From: Xanthobacter autotrophicus | Lineage (GTDB): Bacteria > Pseudomonadota > Alphaproteobacteria > Rhizobiales > Xanthobacteraceae | Assembly: GCF_005871085.1 (NCBI RefSeq) | Contig: NZ_VAUP01000005.1 | Span: 62,001 to 126,000, forward strand | Length of the DNA stretch: 64,000 bases | Direction of reading: 5' to 3' | Shown here: positions 1 through 50,067 of the stretch, one piece after another | Position numbering within the stretch: position 1 is the stretch's first letter | Layout of the letters: the number at the start of each line of letters is the position of its first letter | Notes under the pieces: generated by a model | Seen by the model: only the letters and a program-made list of their open reading frames with translations | Told to the model about the DNA's origin: nothing | Database searches by the model: none | Translations under genes and position numbers: made by a program

Positions 1-3000
1 CGCGATGGGCCGAGCGGCCCGCCGCCTGGACAAGCTGCAGCAGGCCAAGATGGGAGGCCGGCACCTCCGCCGCGCCGGGATCGGCCGGCGTGGTCGCGAG
101 GTAAACGATATGGCAGCGGCCGTCAGGCGCCCTTGCCCGCAGGTCGGAAATCCAGCCAGCGAGGGCATCCGCGCCGGCGTCCCATGGGGGTGGATGATCC
201 GCCATCACCTGCCCACGCGCCGCCAGCGCATCCGCCAGTTGGCGAACCATCGCCGCATCGTCGCCCAGCAGCGCGAACAGGCGTGGTGCGGGCGGGGCGG
301 ACAGGTCCGCCCGCTGCCAGCGCAGGCGCAGCAGCTCCGGCTGGGTCGCGAGGCCTTCGTCCTCCACATCGGCGCCATGGGCGATCCGGGCGAAGGCCAC
401 GCCGTCGAGCTGCGCCACCATCTGCCCGACTCCGTCGCGCAGGATCAGATCCACATGGCAGGTCCGCGCGGCGGGATCATCCCGGAGGCGGAGCGTCGCG
501 GTGACCGCTCCGCCGGCCGGGGCAAACACCGCCACCCGCCCGATGCCCCTCGGCATCCAGGTCACGCCCGGCCCTAGTTGCGGCAGGATCGCGCTTGAGG
601 CGACGAGGCACGCATCCAGCAGCGCAGGGTGGACGAGATAGTCGGCGGCGCTCCCGCTTTCCTTCGGCAGCTCCGCATGGGCGATGACGCCCTCCGCGAC
701 CATCGCGAGGTCCTTGAGGCCGCGAAAGGCCGGGCGGTAATCAAAACCGAACTGCGTCAGCCCGCCATAGACGGCGGCGCCCGGCGTGGCGATGGCGGAG
801 GCAAGGCCGGCGTCCCATGCCGGTTCGGGCGCCGGCGCGGAGGCGAGCTTTGCAGTCGCATGAAGGGTCCAGCCGCCGTCCGCTCCGCGCGCGAACACTT
901 GCCAACCCCCGTCGGCGCCGACGACGCTCTGCAGTTCCACTCCGCCCCGGTCCGGCAGCAGCAGCGGGCGAAGGATCGCCAGATCCTCAACCCCGGCGCC
1001 GGCCCCCAGAACCGCCCGACCGTTCTGGAGTGCAACCTCGGCGAAGGCAGCCAGTGGGAAGGTCGCCCGGCCGCCGAACCGGTGGTCGAGCAGGAAGCGC
1101 AGCCGTTCGCCCCCGAGGGTGAGATTGAAGCGCACCTCGTCGCGCCCGGCGAGGTCCACGCGGCTGCCGGCAAGGCCGTGCGGCGCATGCGCCGAAACCG
1201 TATCGGGGCGAGGGATGAAATAGCTGCCGCGCTCGAACGGATAGGTGGGCAGCGATAGCCGCCGGCGCGGCGCATCCACCGCCGTCCAGTCCGGTTCAAG
1301 CCCCGCCAAATGCGCGGCGGCAAGGCGCGGGGCGATGTCCGCCCACACGGCACCGGAGGGCGCGATGGGGATCACGAACGTGTCCGGCGCCGCCTCCGCC
1401 GCAGGAGCGGGCGTGCCTGTCAGCTGAGCCCACCAGTAAGCGGGACTGGTGACCTCGGCAACGACTTCGCGGCCAAGCAGGCCCGACAGCAGCGGCACGG
1501 CCGGCGGCTTCAGGGCGAGGCCGCGCACTGCGGCGATGAAATCGAGCCGTCCATCCTCCACATCCGTGCGCCCCAGCGCCGCCTGCCGGGCACGCAGCAG
1601 GGCACCAGCATCGGCCAGCGAGAAAACACCCGCGAGGCAGGCGGCGACCACCTCGCCGGCGCCCTGCCCGGCGATGTGATCGGGGGCGAGGCCCCAGCTG
1701 CGCCACAGGGCGGCCAGCGCATAGGCCATCACGAAGGCGGCCACCGGTCCATCCTGCGCGGCCGGCAAACCCGCCTCGGCGCAGGCCGCGACGGCGGCGG
1801 CGAAGGCCGGATCGCTTGCCATCAGGGCGCTCCCACCGTCAGCCGGCAGACCGTCGCCATCGGCGCAGGCGAACAGCACCTGCGGCCGGCGCGATGGCGC
1901 GATGGCGATATCCGCCAGATGCTGGAGCCTGCCGACCAGTTCGCCCACGTCTGCAAACGGCACGGCGGCACGCACCGGAAAGCGGCCGCGCCCGGCGTTC
2001 AGGGTCAGCGCCACCGCGCCAGGATCAGCCTCGGGCCGCCGCGCGAGGGCCCGCGCCTGCCGGGCCGCCAGCGCCCGCAGTGCCGCCTCGCTCTTAGCGG
2101 ACAGGGCGGCGATGTAGCCGGAACGGCGCGGCGCGGGCGCCTCCGCCAGCACCGGCGCGGCTTCCAGGATCACATGAGCATTGGTGCCGCTCATGCCGAA
2201 GGCGCTCACCGCGCCACGCAACGGCCCTTCGGCCGGGAAAGCCGCTGGCGCGGTGGGCACCGCGAGTCCCAGCGCCGCCCACGGCACATAGGGGTTGGGA
2301 GTGGAAAAATGCAGGTTCGGTGGCACTTCCCCATGGCGCAACGCCAGCACTACCTTGAGGAAGCCCGCCACCCCGGCAGCCGCTTCCAGATGGCCGAAAT
2401 TGGTCTTCGCCGATCCCACCAGCAAAGGTGCGGCGCGCGCCGCCCCATAGACCGCGCCCAGCGCGCGCAATTCGATGGGATCGCCCAGAATGGTGCCGGT
2501 GCCGTGGGCCTCCACGAAGCCCACCGAGCGGGCGGGAGCGTCGGCATCGGCCAGTGCGGCGCGGATCACCGCCTGCTGTGCGGCACCGTTGGGCGCGGAG
2601 ATGCCGTTGCTGCGCCCGTCATGGTTCACCGCCGAACCACGGATCACCGCCAGCACGGGATCGCCTTCGCGCACCGCGTCATCCAGGCGGCGCAGGGCCA
2701 CCACGCCGCAACCCTCGCCCCGCACGAAGCCGTCGGCATCGGCGCTGAAGGTGCGGCAGCGCCCGGTGGGCGAGAGCGCCTTCATCTGGCACAGGCCGAG
2801 CGTGATTTCCGGCGACAGGATGAGATTGACGCCGCCCGCCAACGCCCGGTCGCATTCCCCCGCCCGCAGGCTGCGGCAGGCGAGATGGATAGCGAGCAGG
2901 GACGAGGCGCAGGCCGCATCCAGCGCCAAGGCCGGCCCGTGCAGATCCAGCGCATAGGCGATGCGGCCGGCGGCAAGGCTGCGCATCATGGCAAGGCCGG

Positions 3001-3472
3001 CATGGCCGTCGATCTGGTCCGCCGCGCGGCGGTAAAGACGCTCCTGGGTGTAATCATCGGAATAGATGCCGATGAACACGCCGGTGTTCGATCCGGCCAA
3101 CACCTGCGGCGACCATGCGGCGCGCTCCACCGCCTCCCACGCCACTTCCAGCAGCAGGCGGTGCTGCGGGTCCATGGACGCCGCCTCGCGCGGGGAGATG
3201 CCGAAGAAGCCGGCGTCGAACCCCGCGATATCGTCGAGGCTGGCCATGTCCCGCGCATAGGCCCGGGCCGCGCCGGGATCGTCCACGTCCCAGCGGTCGG
3301 CGGGCACCGGACGCACCGCGTCGCGCCCCTCGCGCAACAGGCGCCAGTAGGCGTCGAGGTCGTCGGCGCCGCCAGGAAAGCGGCAGCCGGCGGAGACAAT
3401 GGCGATGGCGTCCCCCTGAGCGGAAGCTTGCGCCTGCGAGAGGCCGTCGCGCGATGTCACAGGCTCCGCCAT
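1..3472 (-). CDS. Type I polyketide synthase, KS-degenerate AT-DH-KR(start); 3' end outside window
   Basis: About 1157 residues are visible from the ATG at 3472 and the frame stays open to the window edge, so the C-terminus is missing. The ketosynthase (about residues 20-445) is intact: Cys188 in DAACASS, His323 in HGTGT and His361 in NFGH. Residues about 490-690 resemble an acyltransferase but are short, and the nucleophile motif GHSxGE reads GQGAGE (Gly604 where Ser belongs). The oxyanion-hole motif FxGQG is also gone. A dehydratase-type hotdog follows with the HxxxGxxxxP motif from His797; its second motif is D953-ACLV, lacking the usual Gln/His. The last visible residues look like the start of a ketoreductase structural subdomain. 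The gene starts 7 bases after the stop of the ligase-carrier gene, so the two are probably co-transcribed. Extender loading must come from elsewhere, or the synthase condenses only once; both are inferences. Confidence 0.9.
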
Positions 3473-3479
3473 GGCCCGG

Positions 3480-5234
3480 CTATGTCGCCGCGGGAACGGC
3501 GCAGGCCCCGGCGGAGGCGGCACCGGCTTCGCGCAGGCGCGCCAGCAGCCCGGCGAGGGTAGATGCTTCCCACACGAGGGTCAGGTCGACGGATCGGCCC
3601 AGCGGCGCGGCAAGCTCCCGCGCCAGAGCGACGCCCAGCACCGAATCCAGCCCGTATTCGGCGAAGGCGCGGTCGCGCTCAATGGCCCCGGGGGACAGGT
3701 TGAGATGGCGACCGAGCCAGTCCCGCACCCAGGATTCGAGCCGTGAACTGTCCAGTTCCGAGCCGCGCTCGCGGCGCGCCGGGTCCTGAGCCACCGGCCG
3801 GGCGGCGGCGCGCAACTCGCGCTTCAGGATCTTGCCCGTGGGGTTGCGCGGCAGGGCGTCCACGAGGACGAAGGCGGTCGGCACCTTGTAGGCGGCGAGG
3901 CTGCGCCGGCAAACCGCCTCCAGCTCCTGCGCATCGACGCTGACGGAGGGCTTGAGGACCACATTGGCCCAGACCTCTTCGCCGAGGAATGGATCAGAGA
4001 CGCCATACACCGCCGCCTCGGCCACGGCGGGGTGAGCGTACAGCGCATTCTCCACCTCGGCAGGATAGACGTTGCGGCCGCCGACGATGATGAGGTCCGT
4101 CAACCGGTCCTCCACCGACAGATAGCCCTCGGCATCCAGCCGGCCGATGTCGCCGGTGTGCAGCCACCCCTGGCGGATGGCCTTCGCGGTATCCTCCGGC
4201 CGGTTGAGGTAGCCCAGCATGACGTTGGGGCCGCGCAGCACAATCTCCCCCGCCTCGCCGGCCGGCAGGTCGCGGCCGTCGGCGGGATCGACGATGCGCA
4301 ACTCCACCCCGTTGATGGCAGTGCCCACCTTGCCGCGGCGCAGGCTGTGGATGTGATTATAGGTGGCGAAGGGCGAGCACTCGGTCTGGCCGTATCCCTG
4401 GTGGATGGGCAGGCCCATGTGCCGGTGCCAGCGCTCCTCCACCTCCAGCGGCAAGGGCGCGGCGGCGGAAAACCAGTAGCGCACGGCAGGACTGTCGGCC
4501 GGCGTGATGCGACCTTCCAGCGCGAGGAAGGTGGTGGGGACGCCGAACACCATGGTGACGCCATCAGTGCGCAGCGATTGAAGCACCGCCGCGCGGTCGA
4601 ACCGCCGCTGGAGCACCACGGAGGCCCCGGCAAAAAGGCCCGGCAAAAGGATGGCGTTCTGGCCGAAGCAATGGTGCAGCGGCAGGAACAAGAGCAGCCG
4701 GTCGGCGCCGGTGACGCCCATGTAGCGCACCTTGGAACGGGCGGTGAACGCCGCATTCCCGTGCGACAGCATCACCCCCTTGGGGCGGCCCGAGGTGCCG
4801 GAGGAATAGACGATGACGGCAGGATGATCATCCGGGACCTCCTCCGACGCCCACGCTCCCGGCGCGGGGCCGATTCCGGCATCGAGCACGGGCAGGCCGT
4901 TCAGGGACAATCGCGCGGCGACATCCCCCTGCGCGAGGGCAAGCCGGCAGGCGCTGTCGGCGAGGATGAAGGCGGTTTCGACTTCCGCGAGCATGGGATT
5001 GATGCAGACCGCCACGGCTCCCAGGCTGAGCACGCCTAGATAGCTGGCAACGAATTCCGGCCCGTTGGGCAGCACCAGCGCGACGAAATCCCCGCGCCCG
5101 ACGCCTTCGGCCAGAAGCCGGGCGCGCACGCCAGCGGCCCGGGCCCGGATCTGGGCATAGGACTGAGTCGCGCCATCGAACAACAGGCAAGGCCTGTCGC
5201 CGGGCATGTGGGCGAAAATGCTGGCGACGTTCAA
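3480..5234 (-). CDS. AMP-dependent acyl/aryl ligase fused to a C-terminal acyl carrier domain
   Basis: A 584-residue protein of the acyl-CoA synthetase/4-coumarate ligase superfamily. The P-loop-like A3 motif YSSGTSGRPKG, the YGQTE motif, the HTGD motif and the A10 lysine in NPTGKILKRE are all present, so adenylation should work. After the A10 region, residues about 500-575 form a carrier domain with GLDSV, whose Ser531 is the expected phosphopantetheine site. This didomain layout implies that the activated acid is passed to its own carrier and not released as a CoA thioester. With the aromatic lyase next door, an aryl-acrylate or related acid is the likely substrate, by inference. The start is a TTG at 5234 behind GGGGGC; the next in-frame ATG at 5207 is an alternative that would lose ten residues. 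It lies directly upstream of the synthase on the same strand. Confidence 0.9.
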   Translation of the reverse strand: MNVASIFAHMPGDRPCLLFDGATQSYAQIRARAAGVRARLLAEGVGRGDFVALVLPNGPEFVASYLGVLSLGAVAVCINPMLAEVETAFILADSACRLALAQGDVAARLSLNGLPVLDAGIGPAPGAWASEEVPDDHPAVIVYSSGTSGRPKGVMLSHGNAAFTARSKVRYMGVTGADRLLLFLPLHHCFGQNAILLPGLFAGASVVLQRRFDRAAVLQSLRTDGVTMVFGVPTTFLALEGRITPADSPAVRYWFSAAAPLPLEVEERWHRHMGLPIHQGYGQTECSPFATYNHIHSLRRGKVGTAINGVELRIVDPADGRDLPAGEAGEIVLRGPNVMLGYLNRPEDTAKAIRQGWLHTGDIGRLDAEGYLSVEDRLTDLIIVGGRNVYPAEVENALYAHPAVAEAAVYGVSDPFLGEEVWANVVLKPSVSVDAQELEAVCRRSLAAYKVPTAFVLVDALPRNPTGKILKRELRAAARPVAQDPARRERGSELDSSRLESWVRDWLGRHLNLSPGAIERDRAFAEYGLDSVLGVALARELAAPLGRSVDLTLVWEASTLAGLLARLREAGAASAGACAVPAAT

Positions 5235-5436
5235 GAAATCGCCCCCAATCTAGAGGTTCCACCCCAGAAAACCGTTGTAACTCAAATCTTTATTCTTTTG
5301 CGGCAACGCTACAAATCGGCCACGCCGGCGTCAAGCGACGCCAGGGGGAGCGACGCCCGCCCGCCGCAGTTCGCGGACACGAGCGCGATGCTATGCGCGA
5401 GTGTGCCGAACCGTGCGAGCCGATCGCCCGCGCCGA
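5235..5436 (-). promoter_or_regulatory. Leader/promoter region of the ligase-synthase operon with a GCAACGC element
   Basis: This 202-base gap separates the thioesterase stop from the ligase start on the same strand. It is locally A+T richer than its surroundings around 5270-5320. The heptamer GCAACGC at 5303-5309, followed by TACAAATC, resembles the 14-base direct repeats found between the thioesterase and lyase genes. A common operator is possible but unproven. Confidence 0.35.
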
Positions 5437-6201
5437 TCAGGGATCCCCATTCCCTACTGTCACCGGGCATAGGGAGCCCAACGCCAGCAACACAGATAAG
5501 CGATGGTCATTCAAATAAAAATGATCGCCGGGAAACAGCCTCATGCTGAAACCCGACGTCGCATGCCGTGACCAGGCTTGCAACGCGTCTTCCGCGATCG
5601 AGTCCGCCGAGCCGCCGAAAGCATGGATGGGAAAGTTGAACGGCAGGATCTCGCGGAAGCGATAGGTCTCGACCGCCGTGAGATCGGCGCGGATCACCGG
5701 CAGCAGCAGGTCCAGCAGTTCGCGATCGCCCAGCACCACGTCGGGCGTCCCGTTCAGGGCGCGCAGCTCACCGACCAGTTCGGCATCGGACAGCACATGC
5801 AGCGGCGGACGGGAGGGCGGCAGATGGGGCGCGCGGCGGGCCGACACAAACAGCGCCGCCGGCATCAAGGCCCCCCGTGCCCTCAGCCGCCGCAGGGTTT
5901 CGAAGGCAAGGAGCGCGCCCATGCTGTGGCCGAACACGGCGTAGGGCAGATCCAGCCGGCGCACCATCGCATCCGCCAGTCCATCGGCCATCTCGTCCAT
6001 GGTCTCCAGGGGCGCCTCGCGGATCCTCCCGCCGTGACCGGGCAGTTGAACCGGCACCACCTCGATGGCGGGATCGATGACCGCCTGCCAGGAGGTATAG
6101 AAGCTGGCATTGCCGCCCGCGAAAGGAAGGCAGAACAGGCGGAAGCGAGGCGTCTCCCGCCTCGCGCGCCCTAGAAACCAGGGTGAGGGTTCGATATTCA
6201 T
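5437..6201 (-). CDS. Type II (alpha/beta-hydrolase) thioesterase
   Basis: A 254-residue protein of the GrsT/TEII family, about the usual family length. It has the early FCLPFAGG loop, the PGHG turn, the nucleophile elbow GHSMG (Ser93) and a late GDHFYL histidine. Such free-standing thioesterases release mis-primed or stalled acyl groups from carrier domains of synthases, and some release the finished product. It sits upstream of the ligase-carrier and synthase genes on the same strand, which fits an editing or release role for them. The ATG at 6201 faces the divergent lyase gene across a 242-base regulatory gap. Confidence 0.9.
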   Translation of the reverse strand: MNIEPSPWFLGRARRETPRFRLFCLPFAGGNASFYTSWQAVIDPAIEVVPVQLPGHGGRIREAPLETMDEMADGLADAMVRRLDLPYAVFGHSMGALLAFETLRRLRARGALMPAALFVSARRAPHLPPSRPPLHVLSDAELVGELRALNGTPDVVLGDRELLDLLLPVIRADLTAVETYRFREILPFNFPIHAFGGSADSIAEDALQAWSRHATSGFSMRLFPGDHFYLNDHRLSVLLALGSLCPVTVGNGDP

Positions 6202-6443
6202 CTGATTGCAACAAGATGGCGGAGGAAGGCGGTATAATACTGCAACGCAATCCCCTGGCGGCCCATAGAATCTTTACACGTTTTGCGGATCAGGCCGGGG
6301 GTGTTTTCTGCGCCACGGCCTTTTTTCCGCGCATGAACAGATATCGCCACCCCGGATCACACTGCAACGCAATCTTGGCACTGGTCACCCGATGTCGCTA
6401 GTCTCGCGCCACAGACCGTGCCGCATCGAGTGATTCAAGCGCC
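6202..6443. promoter_or_regulatory. Divergent promoter region with two 14-base direct repeats
   Basis: This gap separates the leftward thioesterase and rightward lyase genes. The sequence ACTGCAACGCAATC occurs exactly twice, at 6239-6252 and 6361-6374, and a related TTGCAAC lies at 6206-6212. A TATAAT hexamer sits at 6233-6238 but has no convincing -35 box at normal spacing. The repeats are good candidates for the binding site of a cluster-specific regulator; none is encoded in the visible part of the cluster. Confidence 0.5.
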
Positions 6444-7979
6444 ATGAACGTTCACCGGACCCCCGTGATCCTCGTCGGCGCGCAGCGCCTTTCGCCGGCC
6501 GACGTGTGGGGGGTGGCCCAGGGCACGAGCCGCGTTGCGCTGGACAGCTCCCCTGCATTTCGGCAGCGCATCGAGGCCGGCTCCGACCTGCTCCGGCAGC
6601 GCATCGCCTCAAGCGAGCGGATCTATGGCGTTACCACCGGTTTCGGCGAATCGGTGGTCACCGAAGTGCCGGTGCACCTGACCGACGAACTGTCGGCTAA
6701 TCTCGTGCGCTTCCACGGCTGCGGCACCGGCGCGCTGTTCTCGGAACCGGAGGCGGCGGCGGTGCTGCTGGCGCGCATCGCCTCCCTGTCCGCCGGCTGG
6801 TCTGGAGTGCGGTTCGAGGTGGTGGAGCGCCTTGCGACCCTGCTGGACCACCGCATTCTCCCGGTCATCCCCAGCGAGGGCTCGGTAGGGGCGAGCGGCG
6901 ATCTGACCCCCCTGTCATATGTGGCAGCCATGGTCATGGGCGAGCGCGAGGTCTACAGCGGCACCCAGATCCTTCCGGCGGACAAGGCGATGCGCGCGGC
7001 GGGCATCACCCCCATCGCGCTGGCACCCAAGGAAGCCCTCGCCATCATGAACGGCACCAGCGTCTCGGTGGCGCTGACGGCCCTCGCCTTCGAGCGCGCC
7101 CGCTGGCTGGCGCGGCTGGCGGCGGCCCTCACCGCGCTCGCCAGCGACGTGACGCGCGGCAACCCCGCCCATTTCGATCCGCGCATCTTCGTCGCCAAGC
7201 CCCATCCCGGCCAGATGCTGTGCGCCTCCTGGATCGCCCAGGATATCGAGTACCAGCAAGGCACCATGCACCAGGGCCGGCTGCAGGATCGCTATTCCAT
7301 CCGCTGCGCGCCCCATGTGGTGGGGGTGTTGATCGACGCGCTGGACTGGATGAAGCCCTGGATCGAGACCGAGCTGAACGGCGCCTCCGACAACCCGCTG
7401 ATCGACCCGGAGACCGGCGACCCGCTGTTCGGCGGCAACTTCTATGGCGGCCACGCCTGCTTCGTGGCCGATGGCCTGAAGAATGCCACCGCCAACATCG
7501 CCGATCTCCTGGACCGCCAGCTCGCGCTCATCTGTTCCGCCGTCACCAGCAACGGGCTACCGGAAAACCTGGTGGGCGCCGAGGGCGACGGTCACCGGGC
7601 GCACCATGGCTTCAAGGCCATGCAGATCGCGGCTTCCGCATTGACCGCGGAAGCGTTGAAGGCAACCATGCCGGCCAGCGTATTCAGCCGCAGCACCGAG
7701 AACCACAATCAGGACAAGGTCAGCATGAGCACGATCGCTGCGCGTGACAGCCTGCGCGTGCTGGAGCTGACCGAGACGGTCGCGGCCATCTGCCTTTTGG
7801 CGCTGGTACAGGCGGTGGACCTGCGCCGGGGCGAGGGCTGCCATGTCCGCAGCCGGCTGCTGCGCGACGCGGTGCGGGCAAAGGTGCCCTTCAATGATCG
7901 CGACCGGCGGCAGGACGGCGACATCGCCATGGTCAAGGAGATGATCCAGCGGCGCACGCTGCCCCTGGACTTTAACTGA
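6444..7979 (+). CDS. MIO-dependent aromatic amino acid ammonia-lyase (HAL/PAL/TAL family)
   Basis: A 511-residue protein, normal for bacterial members. The self-cyclising Ala150-Ser151-Gly152 triad that makes the MIO cofactor is present in VGASGDL, and the catalytic Tyr61 lies in YGVTTGFGES. Downstream, the NGTSV motif and the ENHNQD segment are typical. The enzyme should remove ammonia from an aromatic amino acid to give an aryl-acrylate. The substrate-selectivity pair is Phe90-His91 (in RFHGCGTG): the first residue resembles phenylalanine lyases and the second histidine lyases, so I cannot assign histidine, tyrosine or phenylalanine with confidence. No other hut genes are nearby, which argues against histidine catabolism. 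Its stop overlaps the next gene's start by one base. Confidence 0.92.
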   Translation: MNVHRTPVILVGAQRLSPADVWGVAQGTSRVALDSSPAFRQRIEAGSDLLRQRIASSERIYGVTTGFGESVVTEVPVHLTDELSANLVRFHGCGTGALFSEPEAAAVLLARIASLSAGWSGVRFEVVERLATLLDHRILPVIPSEGSVGASGDLTPLSYVAAMVMGEREVYSGTQILPADKAMRAAGITPIALAPKEALAIMNGTSVSVALTALAFERARWLARLAAALTALASDVTRGNPAHFDPRIFVAKPHPGQMLCASWIAQDIEYQQGTMHQGRLQDRYSIRCAPHVVGVLIDALDWMKPWIETELNGASDNPLIDPETGDPLFGGNFYGGHACFVADGLKNATANIADLLDRQLALICSAVTSNGLPENLVGAEGDGHRAHHGFKAMQIAASALTAEALKATMPASVFSRSTENHNQDKVSMSTIAARDSLRVLELTETVAAICLLALVQAVDLRRGEGCHVRSRLLRDAVRAKVPFNDRDRRQDGDIAMVKEMIQRRTLPLDFN

Positions 7980-9709
7980 TGCCGCCTGAGGCCGCGCTCC
8001 CCCTGACCAACCAGCAGCGGGCCCGCGCGGTCCGGCGGCTGTTCCTGCGCATCGCGCTGCACATCTTCTTCTGGGACATCGTGATGACGCGGGGGCCGCT
8101 GAGGCGGTTCCGCCGCCCGCCGGCCCCGCGCTGGGCCGCCCTCGCCCGCCAGTATCGCCGCGAGGCCGAGCGGCTCGGCGGCGTGCTCATCAAGCTCGGC
8201 CAGTATGTCAGCGCCCGCGTCGACCTCCTGCCCGAGGAGGTCACCCACGTGATGGCCGACCTGCGCGACGCGGTGCCGCCCGTGCCCGGCCCGCAGATCA
8301 TCGCGCAGATCGAGGCGGATTTTCTCCTCCCCATCACTGGCCTCTACCGCAGCTTCGAGCCGGTCCCCATCGGCGCGGCCTCGCTCGGGCAGGCGCACCG
8401 GGCGGTGTTGCCGGAAGGCCAGCCGGTGGTGGTGAAGGTGCTGCGGCCGGGCATCGACGCCATCGTCGCCAGCGACCTGGAAATCGTCGGCCAGTTCATC
8501 CGCCAGCTCAAGCGGCTGGAGAGCATCCGCCGCCGGGTGGACCTCGACCTTCTGGCCAGCGAGTTTACCGCGGTGACCTATCGCGAGCTAGATCTCGTGG
8601 CCGAGGCCCGCAACTGCGAGCGCTTCGCCCGCGAGTTCGCCCACGATCCCGCCATCCACACACCCACCATCTATTGGTCCCGCAGCGGCCGGCGCACCCT
8701 CACCATGGAGGATGTGTCCTATTTCCCCATCCACGACGTACTGGGCTTCGAGGCCGCCGGCATCGACCGCCGCCGCGTTGCCAGCACGCTGATGGATTGC
8801 TATCTCGACCAGGTGTTCCGGCACGGCTTCGTCCATGCCGATCCGCACCCGGGCAATTTGTTCGTGCGGCCGCTGGCGACGGACGGCGAGAACGCGGCGG
8901 GCTGGTCGCCCTCCAGCCTCGCCTCGGGGCGGGTGCACATTCCGCACGTCACCAACCGGCCGTTCCAGGTGGTGTTCATCGATTTCGGCATGGCGGTGGA
9001 GATCCCCGCGCGGCTGCGCCAGTCGCTCACCACCTATGCCACCGGCATGGTGGCCCGCGACGCCTACACCATCGTCCAGTCCTATGTGGAAGGCGACCTG
9101 CTGCTGCCCGACACCGACCTCGACGAATTGGAGCGCATGACCGCCGCGCTGATCAACAAGTTTCCCCACGCTCTGGTGGGGCAGGTGCGCAAGCGCGACC
9201 TGACGCCGTTCGCCGAGCTGTCGGAAGAATACCAGACCCTGCTCTACAACTCGCCCATGAAGATGAAGGCGGAGCTGTTGTTCGTGTTCCGCGCCATGGG
9301 CATCTGCTCGGGGACGGTGGCGGGCATCGATGCCGCCTTCGATCCCGCCGAGCGCTTCATGCCGCTGGCCCAGCGGCTGGTTGCGGACGAGCTGAAGCCG
9401 GATTCCGACCGGCTCAAGCGCCTCGTCTCGGCCACCGTGCGGCTGCCCATGCGGCTCGACAATCTGCTCACCACACTGGAGCGCGGCAAGCTGCGCATCC
9501 GCACCGACGGCACGGACCGCCGCCGCGACGACATCCGCCAGCTCACCCGCGCGGCCAACCGGCTGGGGGTCGCGGTGTTGGCCGGCAGCGCCATGATCTG
9601 CGCGGTGCTGCTGGGGCGGCAGGGGGAGATTGTCACCACCCCCACCGGGCTCGCGGTGCTGGCCATCGCCATGGTGGCGGCCGGGGTGCTGATCAGCCAG
9701 CGCTCCTAG
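7979..9709 (+). CDS. UbiB/ABC1 (AarF) kinase-like protein
   Basis: A 576-residue atypical kinase-fold protein. It carries the family-defining IKLGQ motif (K72-L-G-Q75), the alanine-rich loop GAASLGQAH, an ATP-site lysine in VVVKVLRPG, the catalytic HADPHPGN segment and a metal-binding DFG in FIDFGM. An insertion of about 35 residues separates HADPHPGN from DFG. Two hydrophobic stretches at the C-terminus (from about residue 530) suggest membrane anchoring, as in UbiB and ADCK proteins. Family members support ubiquinone biosynthesis or lipid homeostasis through ATPase activity. Its one-base overlap with the lyase gene (TGATG) implies translational coupling and ties it to the metabolite cluster. 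Its job there is unknown. Confidence 0.9.
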   Translation: MPPEAALPLTNQQRARAVRRLFLRIALHIFFWDIVMTRGPLRRFRRPPAPRWAALARQYRREAERLGGVLIKLGQYVSARVDLLPEEVTHVMADLRDAVPPVPGPQIIAQIEADFLLPITGLYRSFEPVPIGAASLGQAHRAVLPEGQPVVVKVLRPGIDAIVASDLEIVGQFIRQLKRLESIRRRVDLDLLASEFTAVTYRELDLVAEARNCERFAREFAHDPAIHTPTIYWSRSGRRTLTMEDVSYFPIHDVLGFEAAGIDRRRVASTLMDCYLDQVFRHGFVHADPHPGNLFVRPLATDGENAAGWSPSSLASGRVHIPHVTNRPFQVVFIDFGMAVEIPARLRQSLTTYATGMVARDAYTIVQSYVEGDLLLPDTDLDELERMTAALINKFPHALVGQVRKRDLTPFAELSEEYQTLLYNSPMKMKAELLFVFRAMGICSGTVAGIDAAFDPAERFMPLAQRLVADELKPDSDRLKRLVSATVRLPMRLDNLLTTLERGKLRIRTDGTDRRRDDIRQLTRAANRLGVAVLAGSAMICAVLLGRQGEIVTTPTGLAVLAIAMVAAGVLISQRS

Positions 9710-9749
9710 AGCGGCGTGCGTTCGCCTCAGCTTACGGAAGCCGCTCTAG
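9706..9749. repeat. 10-base inverted repeat between convergent genes
   Basis: CTAGAGCGGC at 9706-9715 is exactly complementary to GCCGCTCTAG at 9740-9749, with a 24-base loop. It lies at the junction of the UbiB-like and glycosyltransferase 3' ends, abuts the dispersed repeat next to it, and could fold into a terminator-like hairpin in either transcript. Confidence 0.6.
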
Positions 9750-11019
9750 AGTCTTGTTTTGACGCGTCTTCCTTACGCGGACCGGCATCCACTTCGCTTG
9801 AAAGCGCTTTGATGGGCGCAGCCGCCAGAATCTCTCCGATAAAGGCGACGAAGTTCGCCTTGGCGTCATAGCGGGCGAAATCCTGCTTCAGGCGCTGGGC
9901 CGCCTCGCGGTATCCCGGCGATGCCAGCATGCGCGCCACCGTCTCGCGCACGCGCTCGGCGGTCACCTCGTCCTCCCGCAGGTTTTCCGCCGCGCCGGTC
10001 TTGGCCACCATGGTGCCGTAGGACAATTGGTCGGTATTGCTGGCGATGCCGAGGAATGGCGTTCCCGCCACCAGCGCCTGGCACCCGCTGGAGGCGCCGC
10101 CGTTGCAGATCACCAGCGCCGCGTTGGCGGCGGCGGCATCCCCCGGCAGGTAGTCGGCGATGAAGGCATTGGCCGGCACGGCCAGCGCGGCGCCGGGATG
10201 GGCGGTGGCCGCGATCACCGTCACCCGAAGGTCGGAAAGCCCGGCCAGGATTACTTCCAGAAGAGCCGGCTCGCCCGAACTGCCGAGATTGACATAGATG
10301 ACCGGCTTGTCGTCGGGCACCTTGTCCCACCACGGCGGCGGCGCGATCTTCGGGCTGAAATCGAGGGGGCCGATGTAGCGGTGGTTCGGCGGCAGGGGGC
10401 GAGTGGGGCTCAGCTCCGGAATGTCGGGATAGACCACATAATCCCCGGCGCAGAAGGTCTCACGCAGTCCCGCCCCGATGGGGGCGACCCCGTTGTTGAG
10501 GGCGGCGATGTTGATGGGCAGCGCCATCATCATGGAGCCGAGCGGTGTCAGCAGCGACAGCAGCCGGTCCCCGGTTTCGCGGCCCAGCACCTTGTGGAGC
10601 GGATGGTCCACCAGCGCGAACGGCTCGTCCGACGACGGGCTCCAGTGAGCGTTGATGATGTTCACATAAGGCACCTTGGTGAGCTGCGCGCTGATGGCGA
10701 GGGACTGGCGCATGTCACCCACCACCAGTTGCGGCTGCGCCAGCCGCATAAGGCGCACGTCCTCGCGCACATAGGCGTTGAAGGTCTCGACGCTGAACAG
10801 CGGCTGGTTCTGCTTCAGCAGCACAGTGCTGGTGGCGGGATCGATGGAGGATTTCAGGGCGATGGTGCGATAGGGACGCGAGCCGATGAGGGCATTGAAG
10901 CGCGGATCGCACGCCAGTGTCACCCCATAGCCGGCGGCATAGAGCGCATCGGCGAGCAAGGTAGGGCGGACCACATGGGTCAGGGTCACTGCCTCACCCA
11001 TCACCAAAATGTGCGGCAT
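9727..11019 (-). CDS. GT1-type (UGT/MGT-like) glycosyltransferase
   Basis: A 430-residue GT-B fold glycosyltransferase from the ATG at 11019, which follows a strong GGAGGGGGAGAGG. The N-terminal half begins HILVMGEAVTLTHVVRP, the acceptor-domain pattern. The C-terminal half has VIYVNLGSSGEP and the donor-site-like NGGASSGCQALVAGTP, with Asn where many relatives have the donor-site His. Enzymes of this class transfer a sugar from a nucleotide-activated donor to macrolides, carotenoids or aromatic natural products. Convergent with the lyase-kinase pair and divergent from the hydrolase-exporter pair, it is the natural candidate for decorating the cluster product. The last 27 residues or so are encoded by a dispersed intergenic repeat and are probably a recent, dispensable tail. 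Confidence 0.88.
   Translation of the reverse strand: MPHILVMGEAVTLTHVVRPTLLADALYAAGYGVTLACDPRFNALIGSRPYRTIALKSSIDPATSTVLLKQNQPLFSVETFNAYVREDVRLMRLAQPQLVVGDMRQSLAISAQLTKVPYVNIINAHWSPSSDEPFALVDHPLHKVLGRETGDRLLSLLTPLGSMMMALPINIAALNNGVAPIGAGLRETFCAGDYVVYPDIPELSPTRPLPPNHRYIGPLDFSPKIAPPPWWDKVPDDKPVIYVNLGSSGEPALLEVILAGLSDLRVTVIAATAHPGAALAVPANAFIADYLPGDAAAANAALVICNGGASSGCQALVAGTPFLGIASNTDQLSYGTMVAKTGAAENLREDEVTAERVRETVARMLASPGYREAAQRLKQDFARYDAKANFVAFIGEILAAAPIKALSSEVDAGPRKEDASKQDSRAASVS
9740..9810 (-). repeat. Dispersed alphaproteobacterial intergenic repeat, copy 1 (inside the glycosyltransferase 3' end)
   Basis: Read on the minus strand it runs AGCGCTTTCAAGCGAAGTGG, then a GCCGGTCCGCG block and a GACGCGTCAAAACAAGA block. 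It aligns with the copy at 39170-39222. Repeats with this core are, to my knowledge, common between genes in Rhizobiales. This copy overlaps coding sequence. Confidence 0.7.
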
Positions 11020-11161
11020 CCTCTCCCCCTCCCCGCTCCGGCCACCCCAGCGCGCGACGCGGCAGCCCCCCGCGAACGCACCTTGAGAAAAACGCCCAAC
11101 TGGTGTGACTATGGCGCCCACCCTGGGCCCCGACATCATCGCTGCCGGCGAGATCCTGACA

Positions 11162-11938
11162 ATGGCTGATTTTCTCCTCGTGCACGGCGCCTGGCACGGC
11201 GGATGGTGCTGGCGGCGCGTGGTCGAGATCCTCGCAGGTGAGGGGCACCGCGTGTTCGCGCCCTCCCTCACCGGCCTCGGCGACCGTGCCCACCTGCTCT
11301 CGCCCGACGTGGGCCTTTCCACCCATGTGGACGACGTGCTGGCGGTGATCGAGGCCGAGGAACTGGCCGACATCGTGCTATGCGCCCACAGCTACGGCGG
11401 CGCGGTGGCGACGCAGGTGGCGGATCGTGTGCCGCAGAAGATTGGAGCCCTCGTCTTCCTCGATGCGCTGCTGCCGCAGGACGGCCGCTCGCTGCTCGAT
11501 CTCGACAGCCCGGAGCGCCGCGAGGCCATCGTCTCCCGCGTGGTGGAGACGCCGCGCGGCCCGGTGCTGCCCCCGGCTCCCGCCGCCCTCTATGCGCTGG
11601 CCGCGCCCCAGGACGTGGCCTGGGTCGACCGGCGCTGCGTGCCCCAGGCGCTGCGCACCTATACCGATCCGGCGGCGCTGACCGGCGCCTGGATGCAGAT
11701 CAAGGTGCTGGCCTATGCCTGCACCCTGCGCTTCCCGGCACCCGACTTCCGGGGCCTGGCGGCACAGCTCGCCAAGGACCCGCGCTTCACCATCCGGGAG
11801 CTGGCGAGCGGGCACGATGCCATGATCGATGTTCCGCAGGATGTCGCCGACCTGCTCCTGAGCAGTGCGGAAACCGGGCGCGCCGCCAAAGCAACATGCG
11901 CCGAGCCCGCAGAAACGCCCGAAGGGACAGCCTCGTGA
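11162..11938 (+). CDS. Alpha/beta hydrolase (small esterase/lyase type)
   Basis: A 258-residue alpha/beta hydrolase. It begins with the oxyanion-type loop FLLVHGAWHGGWCW, has the nucleophile elbow AHSYGG (Ser77) and ends with a catalytic-His region ELASGHDAMID. It most resembles the plant salicylate/hydroxynitrile-type esterase group found widely in bacteria. Start choice: ATG at 11162; an upstream in-frame ATG at 11105 would add 19 unlikely residues. Its GTGA overlap with the exporter gene means the two are translated together, so it may mature or detoxify the exported compound. That link is inferred. Confidence 0.85.
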   Translation: MADFLLVHGAWHGGWCWRRVVEILAGEGHRVFAPSLTGLGDRAHLLSPDVGLSTHVDDVLAVIEAEELADIVLCAHSYGGAVATQVADRVPQKIGALVFLDALLPQDGRSLLDLDSPERREAIVSRVVETPRGPVLPPAPAALYALAAPQDVAWVDRRCVPQALRTYTDPAALTGAWMQIKVLAYACTLRFPAPDFRGLAAQLAKDPRFTIRELASGHDAMIDVPQDVADLLLSSAETGRAAKATCAEPAETPEGTAS

Positions 11939-13479
11939 ACGCCCCGCCTTCCGCAGAGAGCGACGATGCCGCCATCGCGTTGCCGACGGACAAATTCCAC
12001 CGCGTGCTGGCAGGCCTGCTGCTGGTGCTGGCGCTGAGTTCGCTCGACGCCAACATCGTCGGCCCGGCGCTGCCGCTGATCTCCAGCGAGTTCGGCGCCC
12101 TCGACAGCCTGACCTGGGTGCTGACCATCTTCCTGCTCACCAGCACCGCCGCGACGCCGCTCTATGGCAAGCTCAGCGACATGTATGGCCGCAGGCCGCT
12201 GCTCACCATCGCGGTGCTGCTGTTCCTCGCCGGATCAGCCTTCAGCGGCCTCGCCCAAAGCATGAACCAGCTGATCCTCGGTCGCGCCATCCAGGGAGTC
12301 GGCGCCGGCGGGCTGATGACGCTCACCCAGATCACCATGTCGGATCTGGTGTCGCCGCGGCGGCGCGGCAGCTACCAGGGCCTGTTCGGCGCGGTGTTCA
12401 CCATCGCCAGCCTCGCCGGCCCGCCGCTGGGCGGCGTCATCGCCGAATTCTGGTCCTGGCGCTGGATCTTCTACGTGAACCTCCCGCTGGGCGCCGCCGC
12501 GCTCACCCTCCTGTGGATGGGCCTGCCGCCGGGCGTGCGCACCACCAGCCACCGCATCGATGTTCTCGGCTTCGTCGTCATCATGGCCGCCACCAGCTGC
12601 GTGCTGATGGCGCTGAACCAGGGCAGCCATGGCAGCTGGATCTCCCCCACCGTCATCGGCCTCGCCATCGCCGCCGTGGTGCTGGCGCTGCTGCTGGGGC
12701 CCATCGAAGCCAGGGTGAAGGAACCCCTCATCCCCCTCGCCATGGTACGCAACCGGGTCTGGCTGATCGCCACCGGGGTGGCGACGCTGGTCACTATCGC
12801 GGTGTTCGGGGCGCTTGCCTTCATGCCGCTGTACCTGCAGTTGGCTGGTGGCCTCTCGCCCACCGCCTCCGGCATCGCCATGGTGCCCTCGGCGGCCGGG
12901 CTGATGCTGTCGCTGTTGTATGGCGGCCGGGCCATTACCCGCACCGGGCGCTACAAGGTGTTCGCGATCACCGGCGTCGGCGTCGCGACAGTGGCTCTGT
13001 TCGCGCTGGCGCTGGCGGCCTATGCGCTGCCCTCCCCCTACCTCCTGGGCGCGCTGCTGTTCCCCCTCGGCACCGGGCTCGGCCTGCTGATGCCCGGCCT
13101 GACCGTGGCCTACCAGAACGCGGTGGCCCACGAGGACATCGGTACCGCCACGTCCACGGCCGGTTTCTTCCGCTCCCTCGGCGGCGCCTTCGGCATCGCT
13201 GTGGCCGGCGCCATCCTCGCCGTTCAGGCGGGCGGACTGCTGCCGGTGGGCGACGGCGTGCGGGACATGGACACCATCGGCCTCGGGCAATTGTCCCAGC
13301 TGAACCCGGCGGCGCAATCGATGGTGCTTGCAGACTACCAGTCCGCCATGGTCACCATCTTCGCTGCCGCCGGCGTGGTGGCGGCCCTGGCCTTCGCGCT
13401 CATCCGGCTGCTGCCTGAGCAGGAACTCTCCGACGTGGCCAACCGGCTGGGCGCCAACCCGCCCGAGCCCAAGTTATGA
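11935..13479 (+). CDS. MFS drug:proton antiporter, 14-helix DHA2 family
   Basis: A 514-residue membrane protein starting at a GTG that overlaps the hydrolase stop (GTGA). The first helix carries SSLDANIVGPALP, typical of DHA2 members, followed by the loop motif GKLSDMYGRRPLL (motif A) and the antiporter motif C-like segment around LAGPPLGG. About fourteen hydrophobic segments can be counted. Such proteins export amphipathic drugs and self-made metabolites using the proton gradient. As the last gene of the rightward pair it is the likely exporter of the cluster product. Its 3' end overlaps that of the opposing patatin gene by six bases. Confidence 0.92.
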   Translation: MNAPPSAESDDAAIALPTDKFHRVLAGLLLVLALSSLDANIVGPALPLISSEFGALDSLTWVLTIFLLTSTAATPLYGKLSDMYGRRPLLTIAVLLFLAGSAFSGLAQSMNQLILGRAIQGVGAGGLMTLTQITMSDLVSPRRRGSYQGLFGAVFTIASLAGPPLGGVIAEFWSWRWIFYVNLPLGAAALTLLWMGLPPGVRTTSHRIDVLGFVVIMAATSCVLMALNQGSHGSWISPTVIGLAIAAVVLALLLGPIEARVKEPLIPLAMVRNRVWLIATGVATLVTIAVFGALAFMPLYLQLAGGLSPTASGIAMVPSAAGLMLSLLYGGRAITRTGRYKVFAITGVGVATVALFALALAAYALPSPYLLGALLFPLGTGLGLLMPGLTVAYQNAVAHEDIGTATSTAGFFRSLGGAFGIAVAGAILAVQAGGLLPVGDGVRDMDTIGLGQLSQLNPAAQSMVLADYQSAMVTIFAAAGVVAALAFALIRLLPEQELSDVANRLGANPPEPKL

Positions 13480-14478
13480 ACCGAGCTGGCCGGTCCCCGA
13501 AGGCACCGCTTCAGCCGCCCCCTGAGCCGCGATCCAGCTGATCTCCTCCAGCTGCGCGAGCGCGGCGCCGATATCGGCCTGTTCCGCCATCTCTTCCTGC
13601 CGCTGGTTGAAGACCTCGGGCGGCACAGTGGCCTCCGGCTCCAGGTCAGTGGCGAGGAACGGGTCCAGGCGGACGAAACGGTCTTCCAGGATCCGGCTGG
13701 CCTGGTAGGTGGTGGCCTGCAGATTGGCTTCCATCACCAGCTTGATGAGGGCGAGGGGGCGCTCCATGTTCAGCAGCCACCCTCCATATCCCACGTCGCC
13801 ACCGGGCAGCGCCATGTAGCTGTTGGCCTGCCCCTGGCCGACCGAGAGGATCATGGTGGTGGCGATGTCGGCGGCCAGGAAGTCCATGGCCATGGTGAGG
13901 GCGCACATGCTGGGATTGTTGGCATAGAGGCCGCCATCCACCCGCCCCTGGAACACCGGATGCAGCACCGGGATGGAACTGGAATGGAGCGCGATGTCGG
14001 CCAGCAGCGGCGACACCGGCAGGTCCTGCGCCCCGAGATTGTGATGAATCTCGATGGACCAATGGCGGTATTCCTTCAGCTCCACCTTGTTGTCGACGGC
14101 CACCGCCGGCATCAGCAGCCGGCGCCGGACATCGCGCAAACGCACCTCGCCCAGAAGCGACCGCAGGTGCTGGTAGAGCTTCTCATGGGTCAGGAAGGCG
14201 GATAGGCCCGACATGGCGGACAGGGTGCGCGGACTGAACGGCCCGGCCCCCTCGAACGGATGCCAGAGCTGCCAGAAGGCGATGGAGCGCTCGACCCCTT
14301 CGCGGACCGTATCGGACACGCCGATGATGGCGCTGGTGACGGCGCCGGCCGAAGTGCCGGCGAAGACATCCACGTCTTCCAGCAGCCCGGGCTGATGGTC
14401 CAGCAGCCGCCGCAGCAGGTGGCAGGTGATCAGCGGCCGGGTCCCGCCGTCGAGCGAAAGGATCTTGAGAGGCGCCAT
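13474..14478 (-). CDS. Patatin-like phospholipase with altered oxyanion loop
   Basis: A 334-residue patatin-fold acyl hydrolase from the ATG at 14478; a TTG at 14508 would add ten residues. The nucleophile elbow is GTSAGA (Ser43) and the second dyad residue is the Asp of VDGGLYANNP, so the Ser-Asp dyad is complete. The oxyanion-hole motif, usually DGGGxRG, reads DGGTRPL here, so activity may be changed. No signal peptide is seen, so it probably acts in the cytosol or at the inner membrane face. It is convergent with the exporter gene and may or may not belong to the metabolite cluster. Confidence 0.85.
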   Translation of the reverse strand: MAPLKILSLDGGTRPLITCHLLRRLLDHQPGLLEDVDVFAGTSAGAVTSAIIGVSDTVREGVERSIAFWQLWHPFEGAGPFSPRTLSAMSGLSAFLTHEKLYQHLRSLLGEVRLRDVRRRLLMPAVAVDNKVELKEYRHWSIEIHHNLGAQDLPVSPLLADIALHSSSIPVLHPVFQGRVDGGLYANNPSMCALTMAMDFLAADIATTMILSVGQGQANSYMALPGGDVGYGGWLLNMERPLALIKLVMEANLQATTYQASRILEDRFVRLDPFLATDLEPEATVPPEVFNQRQEEMAEQADIGAALAQLEEISWIAAQGAAEAVPSGTGQLGS

Positions 14479-14641
14479 GGAGCCGAGAAACCCCGTCTGT
14501 GCTAACAACCCCCGGAGGCTGGCCTGAACCTGCCGATTCCGTGTCGGTTCACGTTAGCATGTCATGGCGCGGGAGCGATTTGGGATGGGCCGTCCTGGGA
14601 TGAGTCATGGCGCCAGGGTGGTAGGAGGTGACGGGGACGAC

Positions 14642-14725
14642 ATGAGGATGGGTTTGCGCAACGGTGTATCGCCACGGCCCGCGCCCCCGCGCGGCTTGCG
14701 TCCCGGCAGGACGGACGCGGCGTGA
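14642..14725 (+). CDS. 27-codon leader ORF coupled to the STAS gene
   Basis: A short ORF (MRMGLRNGVSP..., rich in Arg and Pro) starts 11 bases after a near-perfect Shine-Dalgarno AGGAGGTG (14623-14630). Its TGA overlaps the ATG of the STAS gene (TGATG, 14723-14727). The STAS start itself has no recognisable ribosome binding site, so its translation probably depends on ribosomes finishing this leader. The product looks like a throw-away leader peptide. This is inferred from signals alone. Confidence 0.55.
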   Translation: MRMGLRNGVSPRPAPPRGLRPGRTDAA

Positions 14726-18195: not shown

Positions 18196-18202
18196 GGGCA
18201 CC

Positions 18203-30124: not shown

Positions 30125-30220
30125 GTTTGAATGTCCCGTTGTCAGGAGGAGGAAGGCCGACAGCCTGAATATAGGCGTCAAGCGTGACAACGGCACAGGT
30201 GCAAAAAGGTGCCCGGAAAA

Positions 30221-30370: not shown

Positions 30371-30441
30371 CATATCAGGCATGTGCCCAGCGCTTAGCTG
30401 GCATGCCGCCCCGCTACCAATTTACCGTCACACGTCATAAA

Positions 30442-50066: not shown

Positions 50067-50067
50067 T

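What the first reader, a model, noticed from the sequence alone, without database searches (positions are those of the whole stretch)
1..13479. Possible aryl-primed, glycosylated polyketide cluster
An MIO-type amino acid lyase, a ligase fused to its own carrier domain, a type I synthase, a type II thioesterase, a glycosyltransferase, a hydrolase and an exporter lie together. The domain makeup suggests an aryl-acrylate starter loaded directly on a carrier and then extended. I do not recognise this exact combination, and the UbiB-like kinase is an unusual member.
Basis: partly seen in the sequence, partly recalled or inferred. Interest (0 to 1): 0.75.

Follow-up and report, generated by a model that had tools for sequence, protein, structure and literature searches.

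The report
Cinnamate-primed hybrid polyketide-peptide gene cluster
The first 14.5 kb of this stretch are one end of a bacterial gene cluster that probably makes an unknown sugar-decorated small molecule, started from an aromatic acid and extended as part polyketide, part peptide; relatives of the cluster occur in other bacteria, one of them in a distant phylum.

Summary
The synthase continues 30 kb left of the window as a collinear type I PKS-NRPS line (C6:32213-67234). In order: aryl ligase-ACP; KS-(dead AT)-DH-ER-KR-ACP; KS-AT-DH-KR-ACP; C-A-FkbM-PCP-Cy-A-Ox-PCP; KS-AT-DH-ER-KR-ACP-C; dead A-keto-acid A-KR-PCP-TE. Expected product: an aryl-acrylate-primed, azole-containing depsipeptide-polyketide, probably glycosylated. 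The window is from Xanthobacter. The cluster is in 5 of 14 genomes of its genus, nearly complete in Chelatococcus reniformis, and has a shorter relative in a Solibacteraceae (Acidobacteriota) MAG. That MAG keeps lyase, ligase-ACP, type II thioesterase, one PKS module, FkbM module, glycosyltransferase, a patatin and the UbiB-like kinase, so the kinase is very probably a true member. UbiB-family genes in such clusters have a precedent (tiancimycin). Unusual: an extension module whose acyltransferase serine is lost in both Xanthobacter and Chelatococcus, and a dead A domain before a keto-acid A domain. Product, substrates and the kinase's role are inferred, not shown.

The parts
1..3472 (-). PKS1, N-terminal 1157 of 1946 residues: KS (about 2306-3418), eroded AT remnant (about 1229-1921), DH (about 371-1180); continues left of the window with ER-KR-ACP to C6:59632
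   Evidence: Pfam; AT motif GHSxG reads GQGAGE, about 90 aa missing; other motifs intact; same Ser loss in Chelatococcus
3480..5234 (-). Aryl acid ligase fused to its own acyl carrier domain (loading protein)
   Evidence: Pfam AMP-binding + PP-binding; best solved relatives are named feruloyl-CoA synthetase/fatty-acyl-CoA synthase, 2-succinylbenzoate-CoA ligase, FadD5 and 4-coumarate-CoA ligase 2
5437..6201 (-). Type II (editing) thioesterase
   Evidence: Pfam Thioesterase 8.7e-49; 46% identical homologue in the Solibacteraceae MAG
6202..6443 (.). Divergent intergenic region; 13-bp direct repeat CTGCAACGCAATC at 6240-6252 and 6362-6374, a candidate operator
   Evidence: The only two exact copies in the 5.0-Mb genome; near-copies in 3 of the 4 other Xanthobacter aligned, not in the fourth nor in Chelatococcus
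6444..7979 (+). MIO-type aromatic amino acid ammonia-lyase making the aryl-acrylate starter
   Evidence: Pfam PF00221 1.7e-149; best NCBIfam BagA_FevW 448 bits, below its cut-off of 1000; MIO motif ASG, selectivity motif FH and Gln in motif 2, where seven presumed histidine lyases have SH and Glu
7979..9709 (+). ABC1/UbiB-family atypical kinase/ATPase, start codon overlapping the lyase stop by 1 base (TGATG)
   Evidence: Pfam ABC1 5.2e-60; kinase motifs, and grouping with the Chelatococcus and Solibacteraceae cluster copies; junction
9727..11019 (-). Glycosyltransferase (EryCIII-like C-terminal domain)
   Evidence: Pfam PF06722 1.2e-14; start corrected; 46% homologue in Solibacteraceae, two copies in Chelatococcus
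11105..11938 (+). Alpha/beta hydrolase; its stop overlaps the proposed start of the exporter gene
   Evidence: Pfam Abhydrolase_6 4.2e-22; 67% in Chelatococcus
11935..13479 (+). MFS drug/H+ exporter (DHA2-like)
   Evidence: Pfam MFS_1 1e-50; 62% in Chelatococcus
13474..14508 (-). Patatin-like phospholipase (a second patatin lies at the other end, C6:31230-32216)
   Evidence: Pfam Patatin 1.2e-15; homologues beside the cluster in G094, G145, G174 and Chelatococcus

Best explanation
This is one end of a 46-kb hybrid type I PKS-NRPS cluster. (1) The lyase deaminates Phe (or Tyr) to cinnamate (or p-coumarate). (2) The fused ligase-ACP adenylates the aryl acid and loads it on its own carrier. (3) PKS1 receives it; its KS, DH, ER, KR and ACP look intact but its AT is dead, so malonyl must come from another AT, or the module only passes the chain on. 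(4) PKS2 adds a ketide processed to an alkene. (5) The NRPS adds a Glu/Gln-like residue in a module carrying an FkbM methyltransferase, then a cyclised and oxidised residue (azole). (6) PKS3 adds a fully reduced ketide. (7) The last protein activates an alpha-keto acid, reduces it to an alpha-hydroxy acid, which the C domain at the end of PKS3 joins to the chain as an ester, and its TE releases the product. (8) The glycosyltransferase adds a sugar, the MFS protein exports, and the UbiB-like protein most likely serves self-protection or control of production. Shown by sequence: domains, motifs, gene order, conservation, purifying selection. Inferred: every substrate, steps 1-8 as chemistry, and the roles of the kinase, hydrolases and patatins.
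For: Domain order from Pfam. The six assembly-line genes lie on one strand, head to tail, in the order expected. Lyase motif 2 has Gln, against Glu in seven presumed histidine lyases of the same bacterial family. The ligase's best solved relatives include hydroxycinnamate ligases. Cy motif DxxxxDxxS and Ox domain are present and conserved. The A domain of the last protein matches the alpha-ketoisocaproate module StsA (6ulx, 416 bits) far better than chains named fatty acyl-AMP ligases (141 bits at best; a chain named only 'Polyketide synthase' gives 155), and with its KR-PCP part it scores 522 bits against 6ulw. The Asp235 position is Val and the A5 motif reads GM, as Ile and GM in StsA. The first NRPS A-domain pocket reads the same in Xanthobacter, Chelatococcus and Solibacteraceae. 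The cluster is collinear across genomes. dN/dS is 0.025-0.378 in the domains tested. Cluster ABC1 copies are split from two other ABC1 groups with support 0.995.
Against: No metabolite, expression or enzyme data. The PKS1 acyltransferase is dead, so the line is not strictly collinear as drawn. By whole-sequence score the lyase is not cleanly an aromatic lyase: every NCBIfam match is below its cut-off, histidine-lyase models (392 and 383 bits) outscore the Phe-lyase model (315 bits), and the best solved relatives are histidine lyases. The second NRPS A-domain code (DLFQVSGIN by eye) departs from the cysteine-like code of a Solibacteraceae homologue, so the azole may not come from cysteine. No MIBiG comparison could be run. 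No pathway-specific transcription regulator was seen among the genes annotated in the cluster.
Confidence: 0.75

Rival explanations
1. One reading: an aryl-primed, glycosylated pure polyketide.
For: Lyase, ligase-ACP, PKS1 and PKS2 stand at the starter end.
Against: Three condensation-type domains (C, Cy, C), two amino acid A domains with intact motifs, an Ox domain and a keto-acid module lie on the same strand among the PKS genes and the terminal TE.
Confidence: 0.04
2. The MIO enzyme is an aminomutase, so the starter is a beta-amino-aryl acid, as in andrimid or hitachimycin (recalled).
For: Aminomutases share the fold and the MIO group; the PDB search lists aminomutases (222 bits) above plant and bacterial Phe lyases (217 bits or less).
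Against: NCBIfam: BagA_FevW tyrosine lyase 448 bits against 302 and 295 for the two bacterial aminomutase models, all below cut-off; the ligase resembles hydroxycinnamate ligases.
Confidence: 0.15
3. PKS1 is a passive relic: the dead-AT module does not extend the chain and only passes the aryl unit on, so the polyketide is one unit shorter.
For: AT Ser lost and about 90 aa missing in both Xanthobacter and Chelatococcus; the Solibacteraceae line shows no counterpart of PKS1. The dead AT is not clearly more relaxed (dN/dS 0.15-0.29) than the DH beside it (0.19-0.27), so the dN/dS data do not separate a used from an unused module part.
Against: KS, DH, ER, KR and ACP motifs are intact in all six genomes compared, and these domains are under purifying selection among the Xanthobacter genomes (dN/dS 0.03-0.27), which a relic would not need; two ATs with intact motifs stand in the same line.
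Confidence: 0.35
4. The UbiB-like kinase, glycosyltransferase and patatin are bystanders caught between clusters.
For: UbiB-family genes are normally housekeeping; flanks of the cluster are variable genome.
Against: Homologues of all three stand beside the homologous line in an Acidobacteriota MAG; the kinase gene overlaps the lyase stop by one base.
Confidence: 0.06

Closest known systems
Arylpolyene/flexirubin-type clusters with an aromatic ammonia-lyase (Pseudoalteromonas shioyasakiensis plasmid region, cluster type inferred from its gene list; flexirubin FlxA/FlxY, PMC3992019, passages read)
   Same: The Pseudoalteromonas lyase shares the FH...HNQDK motifs; lyase plus ligase provide an arylpropenoic starter.
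   Different: That region has discrete ketosynthase, chain-length factor and FabG-like genes; here modular PKS-NRPS multidomain proteins do the work.
Keto-acid depsipeptide modules (StsA/cereulide type; PMC11253843 and PMC4455996, passages read)
   Same: A domain with an aliphatic residue at the Asp235 position and Met after the A5 Gly, then KR, pseudo-A stretch and PCP.
   Different: Here it is a terminal module, behind a degenerate A domain and a C domain carried on the preceding PKS protein, and it ends in a TE.
Thiazole-forming hybrid lines of myxobacteria such as myxothiazol or epothilone (recalled, no call)
   Same: Cy-A with an Ox domain inside the A domain, between PKS modules.
   Different: Starter, Glu/Gln-like FkbM module and terminal keto-acid module.
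Tiancimycin-type enediyne clusters with AarF/ABC1/UbiB genes tnmR2 and tnmR3 (PMC9464397, passages read)
   Same: UbiB-family gene inside a biosynthetic cluster; deleting tnmR3 cut titre about fivefold and impaired growth, relieved in medium without the iodine needed for the product.
   Different: Unrelated chemistry and host; the authors propose TnmR3 as a sensor kinase working with TnmR1, and report no effect for tnmR2.
MABP-1/MSMEG_1954 mycobacterial macrolide-binding ABC1 proteins (PMC8696161, abstract and passages read)
   Same: Best solved relatives of the cluster kinase (5yjz 77 bits, 7cy2 74 bits); ATPase-dependent tolerance to a polyketide drug is reported for them.
   Different: Low similarity; the NCBIfam MABP-1 model scores 74 bits against a cut-off of 800, the UbiB model 266 bits against 488; no drug binding tested here.

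Membership tests
Modular type I PKS-NRPS hybrid cluster | Multidomain KS/AT/ACP and C/A/PCP modules with catalytic motifs and a terminal TE | tested here: met
   exceptions are the PKS1 AT and the first A domain of the last protein, both apparently dead
Aromatic (Phe/Tyr) MIO ammonia-lyase | MIO triad Ala-Ser-Gly and Gln, not Glu, at selectivity motif 2 | tested here: met
   rule from PMC3992019 passages. Whole-sequence scores alone do not separate it from histidine lyases
Phe- rather than Tyr-specific lyase | First residue of selectivity motif 1 (His in TAL; Phe or His in PAL, PMC3992019) | tested here: inconclusive
   Motif is FH; the related lyases aligned have F or Y there, and I looked up no substrate for any of them
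Trans-AT PKS | AT-less modules served by a discrete AT in the cluster | tested here: not met
   PKS2 and PKS3 keep own ATs; no discrete AT among the cluster genes annotated
Arylpolyene cluster | Discrete KS plus chain-length factor genes | tested here: not met
   None among the cluster genes annotated
Keto-acid-selecting depsipeptide module | Keto-acid A domain with non-Asp first residue, KR, pseudo-A fragment, PCP | tested here: met
   substrate not tested
UbiB/ABC1 atypical kinase | KxGQ motif, A-rich loop, HxDxHPGN and DFG motifs | tested here: met
   All four in the window protein; Pfam ABC1 5.2e-60. The strict HxDxHPGN pattern was not found in the Solibacteraceae copy
Ubiquinone-biosynthesis UbiB equivalog | Score above the curated cut-off of the UbiB model | tested here: not met
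   TIGR01982 265.5 bits against 487.55; the cluster copies also split from two other ABC1 groups of the same genomes, one presumed to be the housekeeping UbiB
Known MIBiG cluster | Matching gene set in MIBiG | not testable with these tools
   No MIBiG access; in the listings of the paper searches I saw no paper that describes it

The most novel reading that the evidence does not exclude
The cluster founds a family of aryl-primed, azole-containing depsipeptide-polyketide glycosides shared by Alphaproteobacteria and Acidobacteriota, in which a dedicated UbiB-family ATPase is the producer's protection or product-handling factor, and in which a dead-AT but otherwise complete PKS module is routinely charged by a neighbouring module's AT.
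Probability: 0.25. Interest if true: 0.65.

Novelty: new variant of a known kind. Interest (0 to 1): 0.45.

Why it matters
It points to a natural product for which I found no description, from an organism group that I believe is rarely mined for such compounds. A natural series (full line in Xanthobacter and Chelatococcus, shortened line in a Solibacteraceae MAG) shows which modules and accessory genes travel together. The small-molecule role of the UbiB family is an open question; a dedicated copy tied to a biosynthetic line across two phyla gives a clean test case, and in the Solibacteraceae MAG the cluster copy was the only one found. The conserved AT-null module is a natural experiment in module sharing.

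Tried and rejected
Fatty acyl-AMP ligase for the last protein: NCBIfam first suggested it, but solved-structure scores favour a keto-acid A domain (416 bits for StsA against 141 for the best chain named as a fatty acyl-adenylate ligase). Histidine lyase: disfavoured on motif 2; scores alone do not exclude it. Pure polyketide: rejected after extending left. CBASS origin of the two patatins: the CBASS-lipase model gives only 80.5 and 70.9 bits against a cut-off of 200; the PADLOC hits are to phospholipase effectors; cyclase genes were not searched for. Plasmid collection for the NRPS: the 12 listed of 2671 records match at 33-44% identity. In the four of these regions that I read (Gloeocapsa, Halotia, Brasilonema, Bradyrhizobium; 31-46 kb each) no match over 120 bits to the lyase, the kinase or the glycosyltransferase appeared; the Bradyrhizobium line also has an FkbM-in-A module. 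Paper searches for the cluster or its chemistry: 19 of 20 papers listed; none held all terms; 2; 8 of 1,972 listed; 10 of 45 listed; no listed paper was seen to describe it. [quoted passage not shown] whether it is this one is unknown. Promoter and terminator scans were no better than shuffles.

Limits. The order, phylum and Acidobacteriota searches are samples with a lyase threshold of 1e-110. The A-domain codes were aligned by eye against the GrsA pattern, and pattern and code meanings are recalled. dN/dS was computed for three genes only: on 4 comparisons (G145, G094, G113, G174) for PKS1 and PKS2 and on 2 (G145, G094) for the last protein, whose gene is not on the contigs read of the other two. 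The Solibacteraceae gene with the cysteine-like A domain was matched by BLAST only, not scanned with Pfam.
Full report
WHAT IS THERE. The window is contig C6:62001-126000 of a 5.01-Mb genome in 42 contigs. The ligase protein finds its nearest named relatives in Xanthobacter (86-89% identity in X. autotrophicus AM3 and AM5 and X. oligotrophicus 29k), then Chelatococcus reniformis (63%) and a Solibacteraceae MAG (47%). Reading contig C6 leftwards of the window shows that the synthase at the window edge is the second of six assembly-line genes, all on the minus strand: ligase-ACP (C6:65480-67234), PKS1 (59632-about 65472), PKS2 (54126-59621), NRPS (46008-54122), PKS3 (38200-46011) and a last NRPS-like gene (32213-38161). 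They are followed by a patatin (31230-32216) and an alpha/beta hydrolase (30209-31126). On the right lie the thioesterase, lyase, UbiB-like kinase, glycosyltransferase, second hydrolase, exporter and second patatin of the window.

DOMAINS. Pfam gives: ligase AMP-binding plus PP-binding; PKS1 KS, DH, ER, KR, ACP with only a trace of AT (8.1e-05, below the Pfam cut-off); PKS2 KS-AT-DH-KR-ACP; NRPS C-A-FkbM-PCP-C(Cy)-A-nitroreductase(Ox)-PCP; PKS3 KS-AT-DH-ER-KR-ACP-C; last protein AMP-binding (three stretches), KR, PP-binding, Thioesterase. Motifs were read on alignments with 3-5 orthologues, plus the Solibacteraceae one for PKS2. The PKS1 AT active site GHSxG reads GQGAGE in five Xanthobacter and GHGLGE in Chelatococcus, so the catalytic Ser is Gly in both, and about 90 residues are missing, while KS, DH, ER, KR and ACP motifs are intact in all six. 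The PKS3 AT carries the malonyl-type HAFH motif (meaning recalled). The PKS2 AT reads VPAHS, which I cannot assign.

THE LAST PROTEIN. Its first A domain has no SGSTG-type motif and looks dead. The second was first matched to fatty acyl-AMP ligases, among others. Against solved structures it is clearly closest to StsA (6ulx 416 bits) and McyG (334 bits); a chain named 'Polyketide synthase' follows at 155 and the best chain named fatty acyl-adenylate ligase at 141 bits. StsA is an alpha-ketoisocaproate A-KR-T module (PMC11253843, passages). The match continues through KR, the stretch behind it and the PCP. In the alignment the position of the amino-binding Asp is Val (Ile in StsA), and the residue after the A5 Gly is Met, as in StsA. 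A C domain before such a module would make an ester to an alpha-hydroxy acid, by analogy with cereulide synthetase (PMC4455996, passages). This is inference.

STARTER. The lyase matches Lyase_aromatic at 1.7e-149. The best NCBIfam model is the bagremycin/ferroverdin tyrosine lyase BagA_FevW at 448 bits; histidine-lyase models follow at 392 and 383, the Phe-lyase model at 315 and aminomutases at 302 and 295, all below their cut-offs. Among solved structures histidine lyases come first (232 bits), which taken alone speaks against my reading. Motif 2 has Gln where seven presumed HutH proteins of the same bacterial family have Glu, and motif 1 reads FH against SH. By the rule quoted in PMC3992019, Gln means a Phe or Tyr lyase. 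Phe at the first motif-1 position would favour Phe (PMC9002059 passage on His89Phe), but the related lyases aligned show F or Y there, with substrates that I do not know, so Phe versus Tyr stays open. Lyases at 49-55% identity occur in 41 other genomes of the 398 searched in the phylum sample; the one region of this kind that I read with annotation is an arylpolyene-like cluster in Pseudoalteromonas. In the order sample only the own genome passed 1e-110 (1 of 397). In the Acidobacteriota sample 3 of 297 passed, one of them the known MAG.

PEPTIDE PART. The first NRPS A-domain pocket, aligned by eye, reads DTKDLGLVD, identical in Xanthobacter, Chelatococcus and Solibacteraceae. From memory this resembles Glu/Gln codes. 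The FkbM domain sits in this module in all three; a module with an FkbM domain also occurs in a Bradyrhizobium plasmid line, so it is not unique. The second pocket reads DLFQVSGIN (I for V in Chelatococcus), against DLYNMSLIW, close to the usual cysteine pattern (recalled), in a Solibacteraceae A domain. The residue cyclised in Xanthobacter is therefore uncertain.

CONSERVATION. Five of 14 genomes of the genus carry the cluster. Order and both ends were read in G000, G094 and G145. G113 and G174 are consistent where contigs allow, but the contigs read end inside the cluster. G094, G113 and G174 have contig lengths equal to those of X. oligotrophicus 29k, AM5 and AM3; that G145 is X. autotrophicus Py2 is recalled from its chromosome size. 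Chelatococcus has homologues at 54-77% identity of all genes but the left hydrolase, which was not found, with two glycosyltransferase copies (56% and 38%). The Solibacteraceae MAG has lyase 65%, ligase-ACP 47%, PKS2 47%, a C-A-FkbM-PCP gene, a gene with two condensation-type domains, A, Ox and two PCPs, a further gene matching Cy-A, a last gene with two C-A-PCP units and TE, thioesterase 46%, UbiB-like 48%, glycosyltransferase 46% and patatin 39%. No counterpart of PKS1, PKS3, the keto-acid module, exporter or either hydrolase was found in the 55 kb read. Within Xanthobacter, dN/dS is 0.025-0.378 across the domains tested in three genes. The dead AT (0.15-0.29) lies within the range of working DH and AT domains (0.12-0.29); the dead A domain (0.31-0.38) is the most relaxed part of the last protein, narrowly ahead of its KR (0.31-0.32). 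The genes tested are therefore maintained, and the dead parts are not freely decaying.

THE UBIB-LIKE PROTEIN. G000, G094, G145 and Chelatococcus each gave three ABC1 matches; the Solibacteraceae MAG gave only the cluster copy, though a MAG may be incomplete. An unrooted tree of 13 sequences splits the five cluster copies from both other groups with support 0.995. All five cluster copies keep the KxGQ and DFG motifs and the A-rich loop; the strict HxDxHPGN pattern was found in four of five, not in the Solibacteraceae copy. The best solved relatives are mycobacterial MABP-1 proteins, reported to give ATPase-dependent macrolide tolerance (PMC8696161, abstract and passages). In the tiancimycin cluster a UbiB-family gene is needed for normal growth while product forms, which its authors read as regulation (PMC9464397, passages). 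I therefore favour self-protection or control over a part in building the molecule, at about 0.55; this is inference.

REGULATION. The 242-bp divergent gap between thioesterase and lyase holds two exact copies of CTGCAACGCAATC, the only two in the genome. Near-copies stand in G094, G113 and G145, but not in G174 or Chelatococcus. In the window as a whole, with two mismatches allowed, the number of matches is not above chance. It is a candidate operator, no more.

VERDICT. It is a well-maintained, apparently undescribed PKS-NRPS cluster family of a known kind with some uncommon features. 'Apparently undescribed' rests only on the listings of the paper searches and on no MIBiG search.

Noticed in passing
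window 6240-6252 and 6362-6374: 13-bp direct repeat CTGCAACGCAATC, the only two exact copies in the genome, in the divergent promoter region; degenerate or absent in one Xanthobacter and in Chelatococcus.
   Followed up: partly
window 15384-17279 and 18005-19945: FHA plus trypsin-like protein (found in 4 of 14 same-genus genomes, all of them cluster carriers; the fifth carrier lacks it) followed by a Ser/Thr kinase with Sel1 repeats whose best PADLOC matches are PD-T4-6 kinases (4.5e-93); a STAS-domain gene lies at 14722-15096.
   Followed up: partly
C6:25889-27367, left of the window (L010:5889-7367): A second glucose-6-phosphate dehydrogenase gene next to the cluster, with 93-98% identical copies only in the four other cluster carriers; the other copies listed in the genus match at 75-78%. 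The accessory block may be larger than the cluster.
   Followed up: partly
window 13474-14508 and C6:31230-32216: Two patatin-like phospholipases resembling CBASS lipases bracket the cluster, with scores well under the CBASS cut-off.
   Followed up: partly
C6:38161-32213 (P0008, residues about 45-455): Degenerate A domain directly before a keto-acid A domain, also in Chelatococcus; narrowly the highest dN/dS in the last protein.
   Followed up: partly
L166 (Bradyrhizobium sp. LCT2 plasmid pLCT2): Another hybrid NRPS-PKS line with an FkbM methyltransferase in an amino acid A-domain module, whose last gene ends in a reductase domain.
   Followed up: no
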